Below are positions 5,180-28,295 of a DNA stretch of 64,000 nt, piece after piece. Each line of letters starts with the position of its first letter. The first letter of the stretch is position 1. Position numbers and translations under genes: made by a program. The notes under the pieces were generated by a model that saw only the letters and a program-made list of their open reading frames with translations, made no database searches and was not told the DNA's origin. The stretch comes from Defluviicoccus sp. (GTDB lineage: Bacteria; Pseudomonadota; Alphaproteobacteria; MPNO01). The stretch covers positions 1 to 64,000 of the forward strand of contig JAPPGP010000099.1 in the NCBI GenBank assembly GCA_028821395.1, written 5' to 3'.

Positions 5180-5289
5180 GCGAGACCCTTGTCCACCGGG
5201 GCCGGATTATCCGGCGATGCGGCGGCGATGTCCAATGTCGCCGGCCCGCTCGAGGCGCTAGGATGGCGCCGCCAGGAGTGGAGGCGCGA

Positions 5290-5922
5290 TTGAGCCCAGC
5301 GATCCGGCCCCTCGCCCGGGCGTTCGCCGCGGGCGTCATGGCCGTCTTCCTCGCCGCGCCGGCCGCGGCCGACCGGTCGGACCCGGTCAGGCTCGTCGAG
5401 GGGTTCCACGCGACCCTGCTCGGGGCGATGCAGAACGCCGAGGCGCTCGGCTATGCCGGGCGGCACCGCCTGCTCGCGCCGGCCATCGGCAAGACCTTCC
5501 ATCTCCGCCTGATGAGCCGCATGGTGGCCGGGCGGCGCCACTGGAAGGGGTTCTCCGGCGCTCAGAGGAAGCGCTTCGTCGCGGCCTTCTCCGGCCTCGT
5601 CGCGGCCACCTACGCCGATCGCTTCGACGGCTGGTCCGGCCAGAGCTTTAGGACCCTGGGCTCGGCCGAGCTGCGCCCCGGCACGGTGCTGGTCAAGACC
5701 GAGGTGGTCTCGCCGGGCAAGGCGCCGACCCGGCTCAACTACGTGCTGCGCCGGCTCCGCGACGGCTGGCATGCGGTCGACGTCTACCTCAAGGGCTCGA
5801 TCAGCGAGGTGGCGACCAAGCGGTCCGAGTACGCGGCGATCCTGCGCCGGGAGGGCGTCGACGCGCTGGTCCGGCGGATCGGGGAGACCGCGGCCAGGCT
5901 GGCGGCGGAGGCGGGTGAGTAG
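5290..5922 (+). CDS. MlaC/Ttg2-type phospholipid-binding protein, HpnM-like
   Basis: This 210-residue secreted protein of the MlaC/toluene-tolerance Ttg2 family binds lipids in the periplasm; the hopanoid-associated member is called HpnM. The start is placed at a TTG because GGAGG lies 5 nt upstream and an in-frame earlier start has no ribosome site. The signal peptide ends near 'APAAADRSD'. The core contains 'FSGAQRKRFVAAFSGLVAATYADRF', the usual MlaC central motif, and a C-terminal 'WHAVDVYLKGSISEV' strand segment. It diverges from hpnH, so a role in hopanoid or lipid traffic to the outer membrane is likely. Two parS sites follow directly after the stop. Confidence 0.85.
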   Translation: MSPAIRPLARAFAAGVMAVFLAAPAAADRSDPVRLVEGFHATLLGAMQNAEALGYAGRHRLLAPAIGKTFHLRLMSRMVAGRRHWKGFSGAQRKRFVAAFSGLVAATYADRFDGWSGQSFRTLGSAELRPGTVLVKTEVVSPGKAPTRLNYVLRRLRDGWHAVDVYLKGSISEVATKRSEYAAILRREGVDALVRRIGETAARLAAEAGE

Positions 5923-5929
5923 CCCCTAA

Positions 5930-5945
5930 TGTTTCACGTGAAACA
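5930..5945. other. parS centromere site 1
   Basis: The sequence is TGTTTCACGTGAAACA, a perfect match to the 16-bp palindromic parS consensus bound by ParB. It begins 7 nt after the stop of the hpnM-like gene. With the flanking CTAA it forms a 20-bp unit (5926-5945) repeated exactly in inverted orientation at 5967-5986. ParB loads here and spreads, directing origin segregation. Confidence 0.93.
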
Positions 5946-5966
5946 ATGGTCAACCGTGCTGACCTA

Positions 5967-5982
5967 TGTTTCACGTGAAACA
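5967..5982. other. parS centromere site 2
   Basis: This is a second perfect TGTTTCACGTGAAACA, 37 bp from the first measured start to start. The 20-bp unit 5967-5986 is the exact reverse complement of 5926-5945. The pair lies in the 150-nt gap between the hpnM-like gene and the end of the amidase gene. No T-run follows either copy, so these are not terminators. Confidence 0.93.
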
Positions 5983-6072
5983 TTAGCCTGAAACGGTTAA
6001 TATCCCGTCCCCCGGGGACGCGCCAGGCGCGCGTCAGGGGCTTGGCCGACGGTGCTGAGAGACCGGTCGAGG

Positions 6073-7461
6073 TCAGCCGGGCGCGGCGATCCCGCGCACC
6101 GCATGCACCAGCCAGTGCGCGTGGGCGACGATTTGGGCGTCGGCGCGGAAGAAGCCCATCAGCTGCACCCCGAGGGGCAGGCCGGCGACCGCGAGCAGCG
6201 GCAGGTTCAGCGCCGGGCAGCCGAGCACCGAGGACGGCTCGCCATAGACCATGTCGCCGACCGCCATGCCGACCGGCGCCGGGTCGACCTGGTTGAGGGT
6301 GACGAACCCGTCCGCCCTGCCGGCGAAGGCGTCGTGCCGCGCGCGGAAGGCGATGCACCATTCGAGCGCCCGGGCGTAGTCCTCGGGCGCGAGCTCGCGT
6401 CCGGCGACCACGCGGTCCCGCACCCGCTCGCTCAACCTGTCCCATTCGCGCTCGGCGTACATCGCGAGCGGCCAGCGCCCCTCATAGGTCAGGATCAGCG
6501 CGATTACCTCACGCAGCGTCACCAGGTCCCGCTCATAGGCCTCGATCTCGGGGTCGTCGGCGCGGCCGGCGATCTCGATCCCGGAATCCGCGAGCGTGCC
6601 GAGCCAGGCCTCGAAGGCAACCCTGGTCTCGTCGGTGGTGGCGGCCCAGCCGGCGGTCTCCAGCCGGATCAGCCGCCGGGGCTTGTCGGGCCTCGGCAGC
6701 GTCGCCGGCCCGCCGAGGCTGGGGTGGCCCGGATCGCCGCCCGCGATGCGCGAGACCGCGTGCGAGGCGATCCACAAATCGGCCAGCGTCCCGGTAATGA
6801 AGCCGACATGGACCAGGCTCGGCGCCGAGGGGAAGCCGCCGAGCGAGTTGATCGCGCCGTAGGAGGCTTTCAGCGTGTAGGCGCCGCAATAGGCGGCGGG
6901 CCGGAGGATCGAGCCGCGCACCTGCGATCCGGTGGCGGCCGGCAGCATGCGGGCGCCGACCGCCGCCCCGCTGCCGCTCGAAGAGCCGCCCGGGGTGCGG
7001 CTCTCGTCCCACGGGTTGCGCGACGGGCCGGGCGTGGCGAAGGCGAACTCGGTGGTGACCGTCTTGCCGACGATCGCCGCCCCCGCCTTGCGCAGCGCGA
7101 ACACGCAGGCGCCGTCCCAGCCCGACGACCAGTTCTCGAAGATCGGGCTGCCCACCTGCATCGGCATGTCCTCGGTCTCGTGCACGTCCTTGATGCCGAC
7201 CGGCATGCCGTCGAGCGGGGACAGCGGCCGCCCCGCCCGGTAGCGCGCCGTCGATGCGTCCGCCGCCGCCCGCGCGCCGTCGAGATTGAGGGTGACGAAG
7301 GCCTGGATGCGTGGCTCCAGCGCCTCGACGGTCTCGATGCAGCGCTCCAGATAGGCGCGCGGCGTGTCGCTGCCGTCGAGAAAGCCGGGGACGGCATCGC
7401 TGAACGAGAGCAGCGTCGTCGTCTTCGGATCGTAGGATTCGGTCGTTGCTGGATCGTTCAT
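6073..7461 (-). CDS. Amidase signature (AS) family amidohydrolase
   Basis: This 462-residue protein hydrolyses an amide or related C-N bond through the Ser-cisSer-Lys triad of the amidase signature family. The predicted triad is Lys91 (in 'PVGIKDVHE'), Ser160 (in 'PGGSSSGSG') and Ser184 (in 'QVRGSILRPA'), spaced as in FAAH and malonamidase. The usual 'GTDTGGS' before the nucleophile reads 'GSQVRGS' here, a divergent variant. The start is the ATG behind GGGAGG; an ATG seven codons upstream lacks a ribosome site. The enzyme stands alone, and substrate cannot be assigned. The GatA role is unlikely because gatB/gatC are absent and the motif is divergent. Confidence 0.88.
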   Translation of the reverse strand: MNDPATTESYDPKTTTLLSFSDAVPGFLDGSDTPRAYLERCIETVEALEPRIQAFVTLNLDGARAAADASTARYRAGRPLSPLDGMPVGIKDVHETEDMPMQVGSPIFENWSSGWDGACVFALRKAGAAIVGKTVTTEFAFATPGPSRNPWDESRTPGGSSSGSGAAVGARMLPAATGSQVRGSILRPAAYCGAYTLKASYGAINSLGGFPSAPSLVHVGFITGTLADLWIASHAVSRIAGGDPGHPSLGGPATLPRPDKPRRLIRLETAGWAATTDETRVAFEAWLGTLADSGIEIAGRADDPEIEAYERDLVTLREVIALILTYEGRWPLAMYAEREWDRLSERVRDRVVAGRELAPEDYARALEWCIAFRARHDAFAGRADGFVTLNQVDPAPVGMAVGDMVYGEPSSVLGCPALNLPLLAVAGLPLGVQLMGFFRADAQIVAHAHWLVHAVRGIAAPG

Positions 7462-7577
7462 CGACGCCTCCCGGTCGTGCATCGGTGCGATTTCCGAGCC
7501 GTCGCGGCCCGCCCCGGCATCCTATACGCTCGGCGGGCGGCATGGGGGTTCATGCCGACCGGCGATCCGGGTGGGAA

Positions 7578-7742
7578 CTACGCGCCGAAGGGCGACCGCG
7601 CGGCCTCGCCGAGCGGCACCGCGCGGGGGCCGGTCTCCGAAGCTTCAAGGTTCAGCGCGTCTCCGCCGATGTTCCGCCAGCGCAGATTGAGCACTTCGCT
7701 GCGGCGGCATCCGGTGAGCGCCGACCCCGCGGGCTTGCCCAT
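7578..7742 (-). pseudogene. Tyrosine recombinase (integrase) fragment
   Basis: A 54-codon open frame reads 'ALTGCRRSEVLNLRW' followed by 'SETGPRAVPL'. This is box I of the tyrosine integrase catalytic domain, with the first catalytic arginine, plus the beta-hairpin normally containing the catalytic lysine ('K-TG-PR-VPL'). The lysine position is glutamate, and the H-x-x-R and tyrosine segments are missing, so it is a dead remnant. It lies just downstream of higA on the same strand, inside a 385-nt stretch otherwise without genes (7462-7846), and marks past insertion of a mobile element. Confidence 0.65.
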
Positions 7743-8234: not shown

Positions 8235-8301
8235 GGTGGGGAGGCATGGCGATGGGGTGGGCCGCCCGACTCTCCCTGCTCTCCCACCGCCGCCGCCACC
8301 C

Positions 8302-8412
8302 CGTCATGGCCGGACTCGATCCGGCCATCCATGCGGCCTTTCCGCACGCACGGCGGCCGGCAGGGTGGGGCGGCAGCGCCAGTGGGTGCCCGGATCAAGT
8401 CCGGGCATGACG
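8302..8412. repeat. REP-like element, two hairpins (GGCC then GCCC type)
   Basis: The element opens with CGTCATGGCCGGA, closes the first hairpin (arms 8306-8314 and 8320-8328, loop CTCGA), and ends with a second hairpin (arms 8387-8394 and 8400-8407, loop TCAAG) followed by TGACG. The first stem carries GGCC and the second GCCC. The same layout recurs at 13.9, 15.8 and 37.3 kb. It abuts the truncated higB end. Confidence 0.8.
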
Positions 8413-8462
8413 GGTGGGGACATGGCGACGGAGGCGGACGGCCGCATCCCGGCCCCCGGCGG

Positions 8463-26984: not shown

Positions 26985-28295
26985 GTGGCGCAGCCCGAGT
27001 ACCCCCTGCCGCTGCCGCGCTCGCGCGACGAGATTGCGGCGATCTGGCGCGAGCGCCTGCCGATCGCGGTCGAGCGCGCCAGGCTTTCGCGGTTCTTCGC
27101 CGGGCGTCTCGACCATGTCGACACCGCCCAGCTCGACGACCCCGAGGAGTGGCGGAAGATCCCGATCCTGACCAAGGACGAGCTGCGCGGACTCCCGGCC
27201 GAGACCTTCCACGAGGATTTCTGCATATCCGGCCGCGACGCGGTGGTCGAGTACTGGCGCTCCGGCGGGGTGACCGGACGGCCGCTGTTCTACCCGCGCT
27301 CGGCGGCCGACATGCGCTACGGCATGGAGGGGTTCCGGCGCCTCCAGACCGCCGCCGGCTGCGGGCCGGGCGACCTGGTCCATGTCTGCTTCCCGCTCGG
27401 CATCCACCCGGTCGGCCTCGCCTATGCCCGCGCCGCGCAGCAGCTAGGCGCCGGCGTGGTGACCTGCGGCTCGGGCAACAACACGCCGACCGCGCTCCAG
27501 ATCGAGCTGATCCGCACCCTGCGCCCCACCGTGATCGCCGGCATGGCGAGCTACGCGCTGCAGCTGGCGCAGCACGCCGAACGCCTCGGCATCGACCTCG
27601 CGGCGGGCTCGGTGCGGAAGATCCTGACCGCCGCCGAGCCGGTCTCGCCCGGCAAGCGCGAACGGCTGGAGCGGCTCTGGGGCGCCGAGCTCTACGACCA
27701 GTTCGGCGTCACCGAGGGCTCGGCGATGGCGAGCGAGAGCGAGCGCCACGACGGCATGCATATCTGGACCGACCAGTACTTCGTCGAGGTGGTCGACGCG
27801 GACAGCGGCCGGCCGGTGCCCGACGGCGAGATGGGGCTGCTGGTGGTCACGCCGCTCTGGAACAACACGATGACGCCCTTCCTGCGCTGGGAGACCGGCG
27901 ACTACGTCCGCTTCGTCGACCGCGGCGAGACCGACGGGCCGTTCGGCGTCTTCCCGATGATCCGCCACGCCGCCAGGACCGCGGGTTTCTTCAAGGTGCG
28001 CGGCATCAACATCAACCAGGCCGATATCGAGGATTTCCTCTACCGCAAGCCGGCGATCGCCGATTTCAAGATCGAGGCGGTCGAGACCGGGACCCTCGAT
28101 GCGCTCAAGATCTCGATCGAGCTGGCCGCCGGCGCGGACGCCGAGGCCGCCGGCGCCGAGCTCGTAGAATCGGTGCGACAGACCTTCGAGCTCACGCCCG
28201 AGATCCAGGTGATCGAGCCCGGCACGCTGGAGCGCGAATTCGCCGGCGCGGTCAAGCAGAACCGCTTCGTCGACCGCCGCAGCACGCCGGAGTGA
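26985..28295 (+). CDS. Phenylacetate-CoA ligase-like adenylate-forming enzyme (PaaK family)
   Basis: This 436-residue PaaK-type protein starts at a GTG. The N-terminus has 'WRKIPILTKDELR', the nucleotide loop is 'EYWRSGGVTGRPLFYPRS', and 'LYDQFGVTEGSAMASESERHDGMHIWTDQYFVEV' is the adenine/acyl site. 'RWETGDYVRF' and 'VRGININQADIEDFLYR' mark the hinge and C-terminal domain. It would make an aryl-CoA thioester. Finding two different adenylate-forming enzymes in tandem suggests two related acids or sequential steps. Confidence 0.88.
   Translation: MAQPEYPLPLPRSRDEIAAIWRERLPIAVERARLSRFFAGRLDHVDTAQLDDPEEWRKIPILTKDELRGLPAETFHEDFCISGRDAVVEYWRSGGVTGRPLFYPRSAADMRYGMEGFRRLQTAAGCGPGDLVHVCFPLGIHPVGLAYARAAQQLGAGVVTCGSGNNTPTALQIELIRTLRPTVIAGMASYALQLAQHAERLGIDLAAGSVRKILTAAEPVSPGKRERLERLWGAELYDQFGVTEGSAMASESERHDGMHIWTDQYFVEVVDADSGRPVPDGEMGLLVVTPLWNNTMTPFLRWETGDYVRFVDRGETDGPFGVFPMIRHAARTAGFFKVRGININQADIEDFLYRKPAIADFKIEAVETGTLDALKISIELAAGADAEAAGAELVESVRQTFELTPEIQVIEPGTLEREFAGAVKQNRFVDRRSTPE

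What the first reader, a model, noticed from the sequence alone, without database searches (positions are those of the whole stretch)
5926..5986. Pair of perfect parS sites in exact inverted arrangement
Two copies of TGTTTCACGTGAAACA, each within a 20-bp unit (5926-5945 and 5967-5986) that is the exact reverse complement of the other, lie between an hpnM-like gene and an amidase. parS sites usually cluster near oriC and parAB, and neither is in the window, so this may be an outlying ParB loading site. The conserved CTAAT extension on the outer side of both copies is more than ParB needs.
Basis: partly seen in the sequence, partly recalled or inferred. Interest (0 to 1): 0.65.

Follow-up and report, generated by a model that had tools for sequence, protein, structure and literature searches.

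The report
Centromere sites scattered by a repeat
The two perfect bacterial-centromere (parS) sites are real, and they sit inside a roughly 100-base repeat, found only in this genus of sponge-associated bacteria, that has spread 22 to 52 perfect parS sites over the chromosome instead of keeping a few beside the replication origin, which breaks the rule known for almost all bacteria.

Summary
In detail: two exact parS 16-mers (5930-5945, 5967-5982) in exact inverted arrangement. They are not a lone outlying site. They are the front half of a ~98-bp dispersed repeat (5925-6022): CTAA-parS-[21-bp GGTCA...TGACC core]-parS-TTAG-tail with GTCCCCCGGGGAC. The genome holds 22 exact copies of the 16-mer on 17 of its 266 contigs. 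Four relatives of the same genus (Defluviicoccus MAGs) hold 23-52, the sister genus 2, and the rest of the class usually 0-5. Copies sit at gene 3' ends. In 26 copies picked by their tail, not by parS, the two parS sites are 99% identical pairwise against 83% for the core between them, with no compensatory changes, so the letters themselves are under selection. A canonical ParB, ParA and SMC are present, and the ori-proximal parS array upstream of mnmG has the same parS-core-parS structure. Placement fits the whole genome; confinement to 20% of it is rejected. Best reading: a genus-specific repeat, probably derived from the native centromere, that supplies ParB-binding sites genome-wide. ParB binding is inferred, not shown. 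How the repeat spread is unknown (no REP-type transposase found).

The parts
5925..6022 (+). whole dispersed repeat (parS - core - parS - tail), oriented with its CTAA foot at the stop codon of the hpnM-like gene
   Evidence: nhmmer hit to a model of 43 copies, 94.3 bits, E 4.7e-27, positions 2-102 of 105; 83-89% DNA identity to many places in four related genomes
5926..5929 (+). foot CTAA (outer edge of the repeat)
   Evidence: a related TAA/TTAG edge flanks most copies; in 10 oriented copies of the family its TAA is the stop codon itself
5930..5945 (.). parS 1, exact consensus 16-mer
5946..5966 (+). 21-bp core ATGGTCAACCGTGCTGACCTA, imperfect palindrome GGTCA...TGACC
   Evidence: most core places found in the own genome lie beside an exact or one-mismatch parS, the rest are weak one-mismatch matches
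5967..5982 (.). parS 2, exact consensus 16-mer, 37 bp from parS 1
5983..5986 (+). TTAG, mirror image of the foot, followed by the tail
5987..6022 (+). tail of the repeat, GCCTGAAACGG variant, ending in the palindrome GTCCCCCGGGGAC (6007-6019)
5263..5922 (+). HpnM/MlaC-family gene whose 3' end abuts the repeat (stop TAG 5920-5922)
   Evidence: PF05494, 122.6 bits; the G002 ortholog is 88% identical and lacks the repeat
6073..7482 (-). amidase gene converging on the tail of the repeat
   Evidence: PF01425, 198.9 bits; orthologs in G001, G003, G004 have other neighbours and no repeat

Best explanation
The site is one copy of a genus-specific dispersed intergenic repeat that carries one or two perfect parS sites. 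Shown: the repeat's anatomy; 22-52 exact parS per genome in five species against 2 in the sister genus; preference for gene 3' ends; genome-scale spread; gain, loss or rearrangement at individual sites; and near-absolute conservation of the 16-mer while the DNA between the two sites drifts. Inferred: the native centromere upstream of mnmG expanded into a 37-bp-spaced parS-core-parS array, the module gained a tail and was copied to 3' ends around the chromosome, and the copies were kept because the chromosomal ParB binds them. ParB would nucleate at each copy, spread over the flanking DNA in the CTP-dependent way and possibly load SMC. The chromosome would then carry many small ParB complexes in addition to the ori cluster, acting in nucleoid organisation or ParB retention rather than as one point centromere. 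The 3'-end position would keep ParB spreading away from promoters.
For: Exact consensus and copy counts. Canonical ParB (216 bits to Caulobacter ParB 6T1F), ParA and SMC present. 26 copies chosen by the tail, not by parS: pairwise identity 0.991 and 0.986 in the two parS, 0.833 in the core, 0.757 in the foot. No compensatory changes between parS arms in 47 distinct copies, and frequent broken core pairs, so selection is on letters and not on a hairpin. mnmG-upstream parS arrays with the same core at 37-bp spacing. 64 of 82 oriented copies have a gene reading toward the foot (p = 3e-7), 39 within 25 bp of the stop codon, convergent spacers enriched 3.3-fold and divergent ones depleted. Placement in four genomes fits the whole genome; a 20% domain is rejected.
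Against: No binding data. In Caulobacter and P. aeruginosa, extra parS far from ori is harmful or not tolerated (PMC5815017, PMC5098823), so dozens of active sites would need an altered ParB/SMC regime. All genomes are draft MAGs, so distance to oriC is inferred statistically, not mapped, and the model assumes exponential contig lengths. Residue A184 of Caulobacter ParB (numbering from memory) is N here, of unknown effect. The mechanism of copying is unknown.
Confidence: 0.6

Rival explanations
1. Selfish or neutral repeat: a MITE/REP-like element that carries parS as a passenger or uses ParB for its own upkeep, with no benefit to the cell.
For: Multi-copy, short, palindrome-rich, non-coding and genus-specific; sites differ between species, with filled/empty contrasts at the hpnM 3' end and at L236 versus L224/L176; other ~120-bp dispersed repeats lie next to many copies.
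Against: A passenger would drift like the core; parS does not. No RAYT/Y1 transposase in any of six genomes; no clear target-site duplications; many copies are retained at the same gene ends in 2-5 species.
Confidence: 0.22
2. Ordinary enlarged ori-proximal parS cluster, as in Streptomyces or Listeria, that only looks scattered because the assembly is fragmented.
For: High parS numbers near ori are known (20-23; PMC7333895); some copies lie near ori-type genes (mnmG/parAB; Tim44-MltA in L213, ori-proximity of the latter from memory).
Against: Contigs of 60-194 kb carry one clump each; observed contig lengths fit genome-wide placement, and domains of 10% and 20% are rejected (30% borderline by length). 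Breaks near repeats in G000 and G001 weaken but do not remove this; G002 shows no such breaks and gives the same result.
Confidence: 0.1
3. Transcription terminator or mRNA 3'-end hairpin whose palindromes merely resemble parS.
For: Strong predicted fold (z -6.05); 3'-end position; many relatives' copies have GTCCC..GGGAC followed by TATTTTT.
Against: The window copy has no T-run after its tail hairpin, and only weak core hairpins score. No covariation between parS arms and frequently broken core pairs. The conserved block is exactly the ParB consensus.
Confidence: 0.06
4. Artefact: binning contamination or chance palindrome.
For: The assemblies are MAGs; two copies sit in a mis-binned 'Vicinamibacteria' MAG.
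Against: Five separate assemblies, orthologous neighbours, zero reversed-pattern control hits.
Confidence: 0.01

Closest known systems
Chromosomal parS sites (ParABS), e.g. Caulobacter, Bacillus, Streptomyces
   Same: Identical 16-mer consensus, cognate ParAB in the genome, parS inside rsmG and upstream of mnmG beside parAB.
   Different: Known sets are 1-23 sites, nearly all in the ori domain (PMC7022226 Table 1; PMC7333895). Here 22-52 exact sites ride on a dispersed repeat and fit genome-wide placement.
REP/BIME and MITE-type palindromic repeats
   Same: Short, intergenic, multi-copy, built of palindromes, at gene 3' ends.
   Different: No Y1/RAYT transposase found; one block (parS) is nearly invariant and equals a protein's binding consensus; no target-site duplications seen.
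Half-parS binding by P. aeruginosa ParB
   Same: A known case of ParB binding at very many sites genome-wide, acting like a nucleoid-associated protein (PMC7022226, PMC10419367).
   Different: Those are heptamer half-sites; here the sites are full, perfect palindromes, often paired at 37 bp.
SGI1 hijack of a plasmid parABS system
   Same: A mobile element carrying partition sites (PMC10954446, abstract only).
   Different: That is a gene-bearing island using a plasmid's system; here a ~100-bp gene-less repeat uses the chromosomal consensus.

Membership tests
chromosomal parS site | match to the consensus TGTTTCACGTGAAACA | tested here: met
   two exact copies
chromosomal parS site | cognate chromosomal ParA/ParB encoded in the genome | tested here: met
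   parB on C136 over the curated cut-off, parA upstream, parS in rsmG
chromosomal parS site | location in the ori domain (about 20% of the chromosome) | tested here: not met
   for the set as a whole: placement confined to 20% rejected by simulation; the distance of this single copy is not mapped
chromosomal parS site | bound by ParB and able to nucleate spreading | not testable with these tools
   needs ChIP-seq, EMSA or a CTPase assay
chromosomal parS site | sequence-level purifying selection | tested here: met
   0.99 against 0.83 pairwise identity, no compensatory changes
REP/BIME element | short intergenic palindromic repeat in many copies | tested here: met
REP/BIME element | associated RAYT (Y1_Tnp) transposase | tested here: not met
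   PF01797 absent from six genomes while found in control genomes
MITE | terminal inverted repeats with target-site duplications | tested here: inconclusive
   filled/empty comparisons show presence/absence but flanks are too diverged to read a duplication
intrinsic terminator | G+C stem followed by a T-run | tested here: inconclusive
   not in the window copy's tail; present by eye in several relatives' copies

The most novel reading that the evidence does not exclude
A bacterial genus has turned its point centromere into a dispersed one: a repeat has seeded tens of functional, ParB-loading parS sites around the chromosome, so that ParB and possibly SMC act genome-wide, loosely comparable to a holocentric chromosome.
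Probability: 0.35. Interest if true: 0.9.

Novelty: new variant of a known kind. Interest (0 to 1): 0.72.

Why it matters
A 2020 review lists as open why parS number varies and why sites cluster near the origin (PMC7333895), and engineered parS sites far from ori harm Caulobacter and P. aeruginosa (PMC5815017, PMC5098823). A natural genus with 22-52 perfect sites spread by a repeat, with parS frozen while the rest drifts, is a natural experiment on those questions. It also shows a plausible route by which a centromere site can multiply, and gives about 20 comparable loci per genome for ChIP-seq or Hi-C.

Tried and rejected
RAYT/REP origin: no PF01797 hit. Mobile gene cassettes between inverted copies: the modules hold ordinary genes (dinB, CoA transferase, thiolase, purEK, Tim44, MltA, hydantoinase), so an island reading was dropped. 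RNA hairpin: no covariation; Rfam gave only sub-threshold MIR918 chance hits. Viral contigs: no composite element. Other genera with parS-NN-GGTCARC lack the rest of the repeat. Contig coverage in record titles showed no usable ori-to-ter gradient. One search used a pattern one base too long and is void. The first gene calls were on the wrong strand and were redone. The Livny 2007 survey is not held; its content is cited only through reviews.

Full report
Observation. The symmetry reaches 27 nt per arm with a 7-nt loop. The unit is flanked by an HpnM/MlaC-type gene that ends 3 bp before it and an amidase on the opposite strand.

Whole genome. The window is the start of contig C248 of a 4.94-Mb, 266-contig assembly. 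The genome holds 22 exact copies of the 16-mer on 17 contigs, 6 further places with one mismatch and 4 with two; the backwards-pattern control gives 0. The chromosomal parA and parB lie on C136, and parS is embedded in the start of rsmG as in other alphaproteobacteria. ParB aligns to Caulobacter ParB of PDB entry 6T1F with 216 bits. SMC is present, split over two contigs in G000.

Relatives. In 97 genomes of the class the usual number of exact copies is 0-5 (two reach 7 and 9), but the four congeners have 35, 23, 52 and 35, and the only other genus of the family has 2. A scan of 84,980 species shows the parS-NN-GGTCARC combination in quantity only in MAGs named Defluviicoccus, one of which (bin129) comes, by its name, from a sponge metagenome study (PMC5649159). 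Single hits elsewhere lack the second parS and tail and look like chance, except two contigs in a 'Vicinamibacteria' MAG, which carry the repeat and are probably mis-binned.

The repeat. Aligned copies give: TAA - parS - 21-bp core (GGTCA...TGACC) - parS - TTRG - tail with CCCGATATGGGAC or GCCTGAAACGG and a GTCCCC.GGGGAC palindrome, about 100 bp in all; shorter one-parS forms also occur. The window copy spans 5925-6022 (94 bits). This explains the 'CTAAT' extension: it is the edge of the repeat.

Is parS the selected part? Copies were re-selected using only the tail. Of 29, 26 have an exact proximal and 23 an exact distal parS. In the 26 copies that carry both sites, pairwise identity is 0.991 and 0.986 in the two parS, 0.833 in the 21 bp between them and 0.757 in the foot. 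In 47 distinct two-parS copies, 13 positions changed on one arm, none was compensated on the other, and the core stem is often mispaired. The selection is therefore on DNA letters, as expected for a protein site, and not on a hairpin.

Origin. In three congeners the intergenic region upstream of mnmG, about 2 kb from the rsmG parS, carries three parS at 37-bp spacing separated by the same core; a fourth has two; the sister genus has a single parS there without core. The repeat therefore resembles the native centromere array plus a tail. The direction of copying (array to repeat) is inference.

Position. Of 82 oriented copies with a neighbouring gene on the foot side, 64 have that gene reading toward the repeat (p = 3e-7). 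In 39 the stop codon is within 25 bp, and in 10 the TAA of the foot is the stop. Convergent spacers are enriched 3.3-fold (p = 1e-6) and divergent ones depleted. All 9 oriented copy pairs closer than 10 kb face each other foot-inward around 2-7 kb of ordinary genes; these are about five independent modules, so this is suggestive only.

Turnover. Many copies are shared by two to five species at the same gene end. Others differ. At the window locus, G002 (88-95% identical over hpnM and the 5 kb before it) has hpnM convergent with a squalene-synthase-like gene and no repeat. In the window genome that synthase is on C108. The amidase has another neighbour in G001, G003 and G004. The window copy therefore sits on a rearrangement junction.

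Spread. All exact copies of G000, G001, G002 and G004 were recovered. After merging units within 10 kb, 71 clumps lie on 70 contigs that sum to 2.8 Mb. (For G000 this table also counts C124, whose copy has a one-mismatch site.) Simulation with exponential contig lengths gives 3.1 Mb for genome-wide placement, 2.2 Mb for a 20% domain (p < 0.001) and 1.6 Mb for 10% (p < 0.001); 30% is borderline by length (p = 0.05) and rejected by contig number. Contig breaks near repeats in G000 and G001 (7 contigs each) could hide some neighbours; G002 has none and shows the same. Exact positions relative to oriC remain unknown.

Literature. Known parS sets are 1-23 sites, concentrated near ori (PMC7022226, PMC7333895). 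Ectopic parS is tolerated best within about 500 kb surrounding ori in Caulobacter, with a limited zone near ter (PMC5815017), and must lie within about 650 kb around oriC to work in P. aeruginosa, where sites 1-1.5 Mb away could not be maintained (PMC5098823). No held paper describes parS carried by a dispersed repeat; absence from this library is weak evidence.

Verdict. The best explanation is a genus-specific parS-bearing repeat that provides ParB sites widely over the chromosome. ParB occupancy, benefit to the cell and the copying mechanism are not shown.

Noticed in passing
window 7586-7722: Another dispersed ~126-bp repeat: 85-90% identical copies in several places of G003 and G004.
   Followed up: no
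window 8287-8413: A further short repeat, 78-80% identical at two places in G001.
   Followed up: no
L203 6670-6759, L204 10533-10622, L166 2509-2598, L188 6600-6652: Ori-proximal parS arrays upstream of mnmG: three (G003, G004, G001) or two (G002) perfect parS at exactly 37-bp spacing, a candidate ancestor of the repeat.
   Followed up: partly
G000 contig C124: 8783-10046 (L017, L019) and parS at 27431 (in L036): Two adjacent ParB-like genes on the same contig as a parS repeat with one mismatch, about 17 kb away; possibly a second partition locus or integrated plasmid.
   Followed up: no
L082 and L140 (JAJEEA010000103, JAJEEA010000484): Contigs of a MAG named Vicinamibacteria (p16x33bins.71) carry the Defluviicoccus repeat; probable mis-binning.
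   Followed up: partly
element-bearing contigs of G000 and G001: In 7 of 18 and 7 of 19 element-bearing contigs a repeat copy lies within 1.5 kb of a contig end, more than expected; assembly breaks or strain variation may cluster near copies.
   Followed up: partly
L073 5331 and 7641 (JANSXH010000003): A distant proteobacterium has parS flanking an mnmG-like gene, and the second one is followed by atggtcagcattgctgtccat, very like the core of the repeat; chance or an ancestral parS-core unit.
   Followed up: partly
oriented pairs L030, L180, L182, L208, L218, L223, L229, L234, L236: All close repeat pairs are foot-inward; direct-repeat or tail-inward pairs were not seen, perhaps because direct repeats delete essential genes by recombination.
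   Followed up: partly
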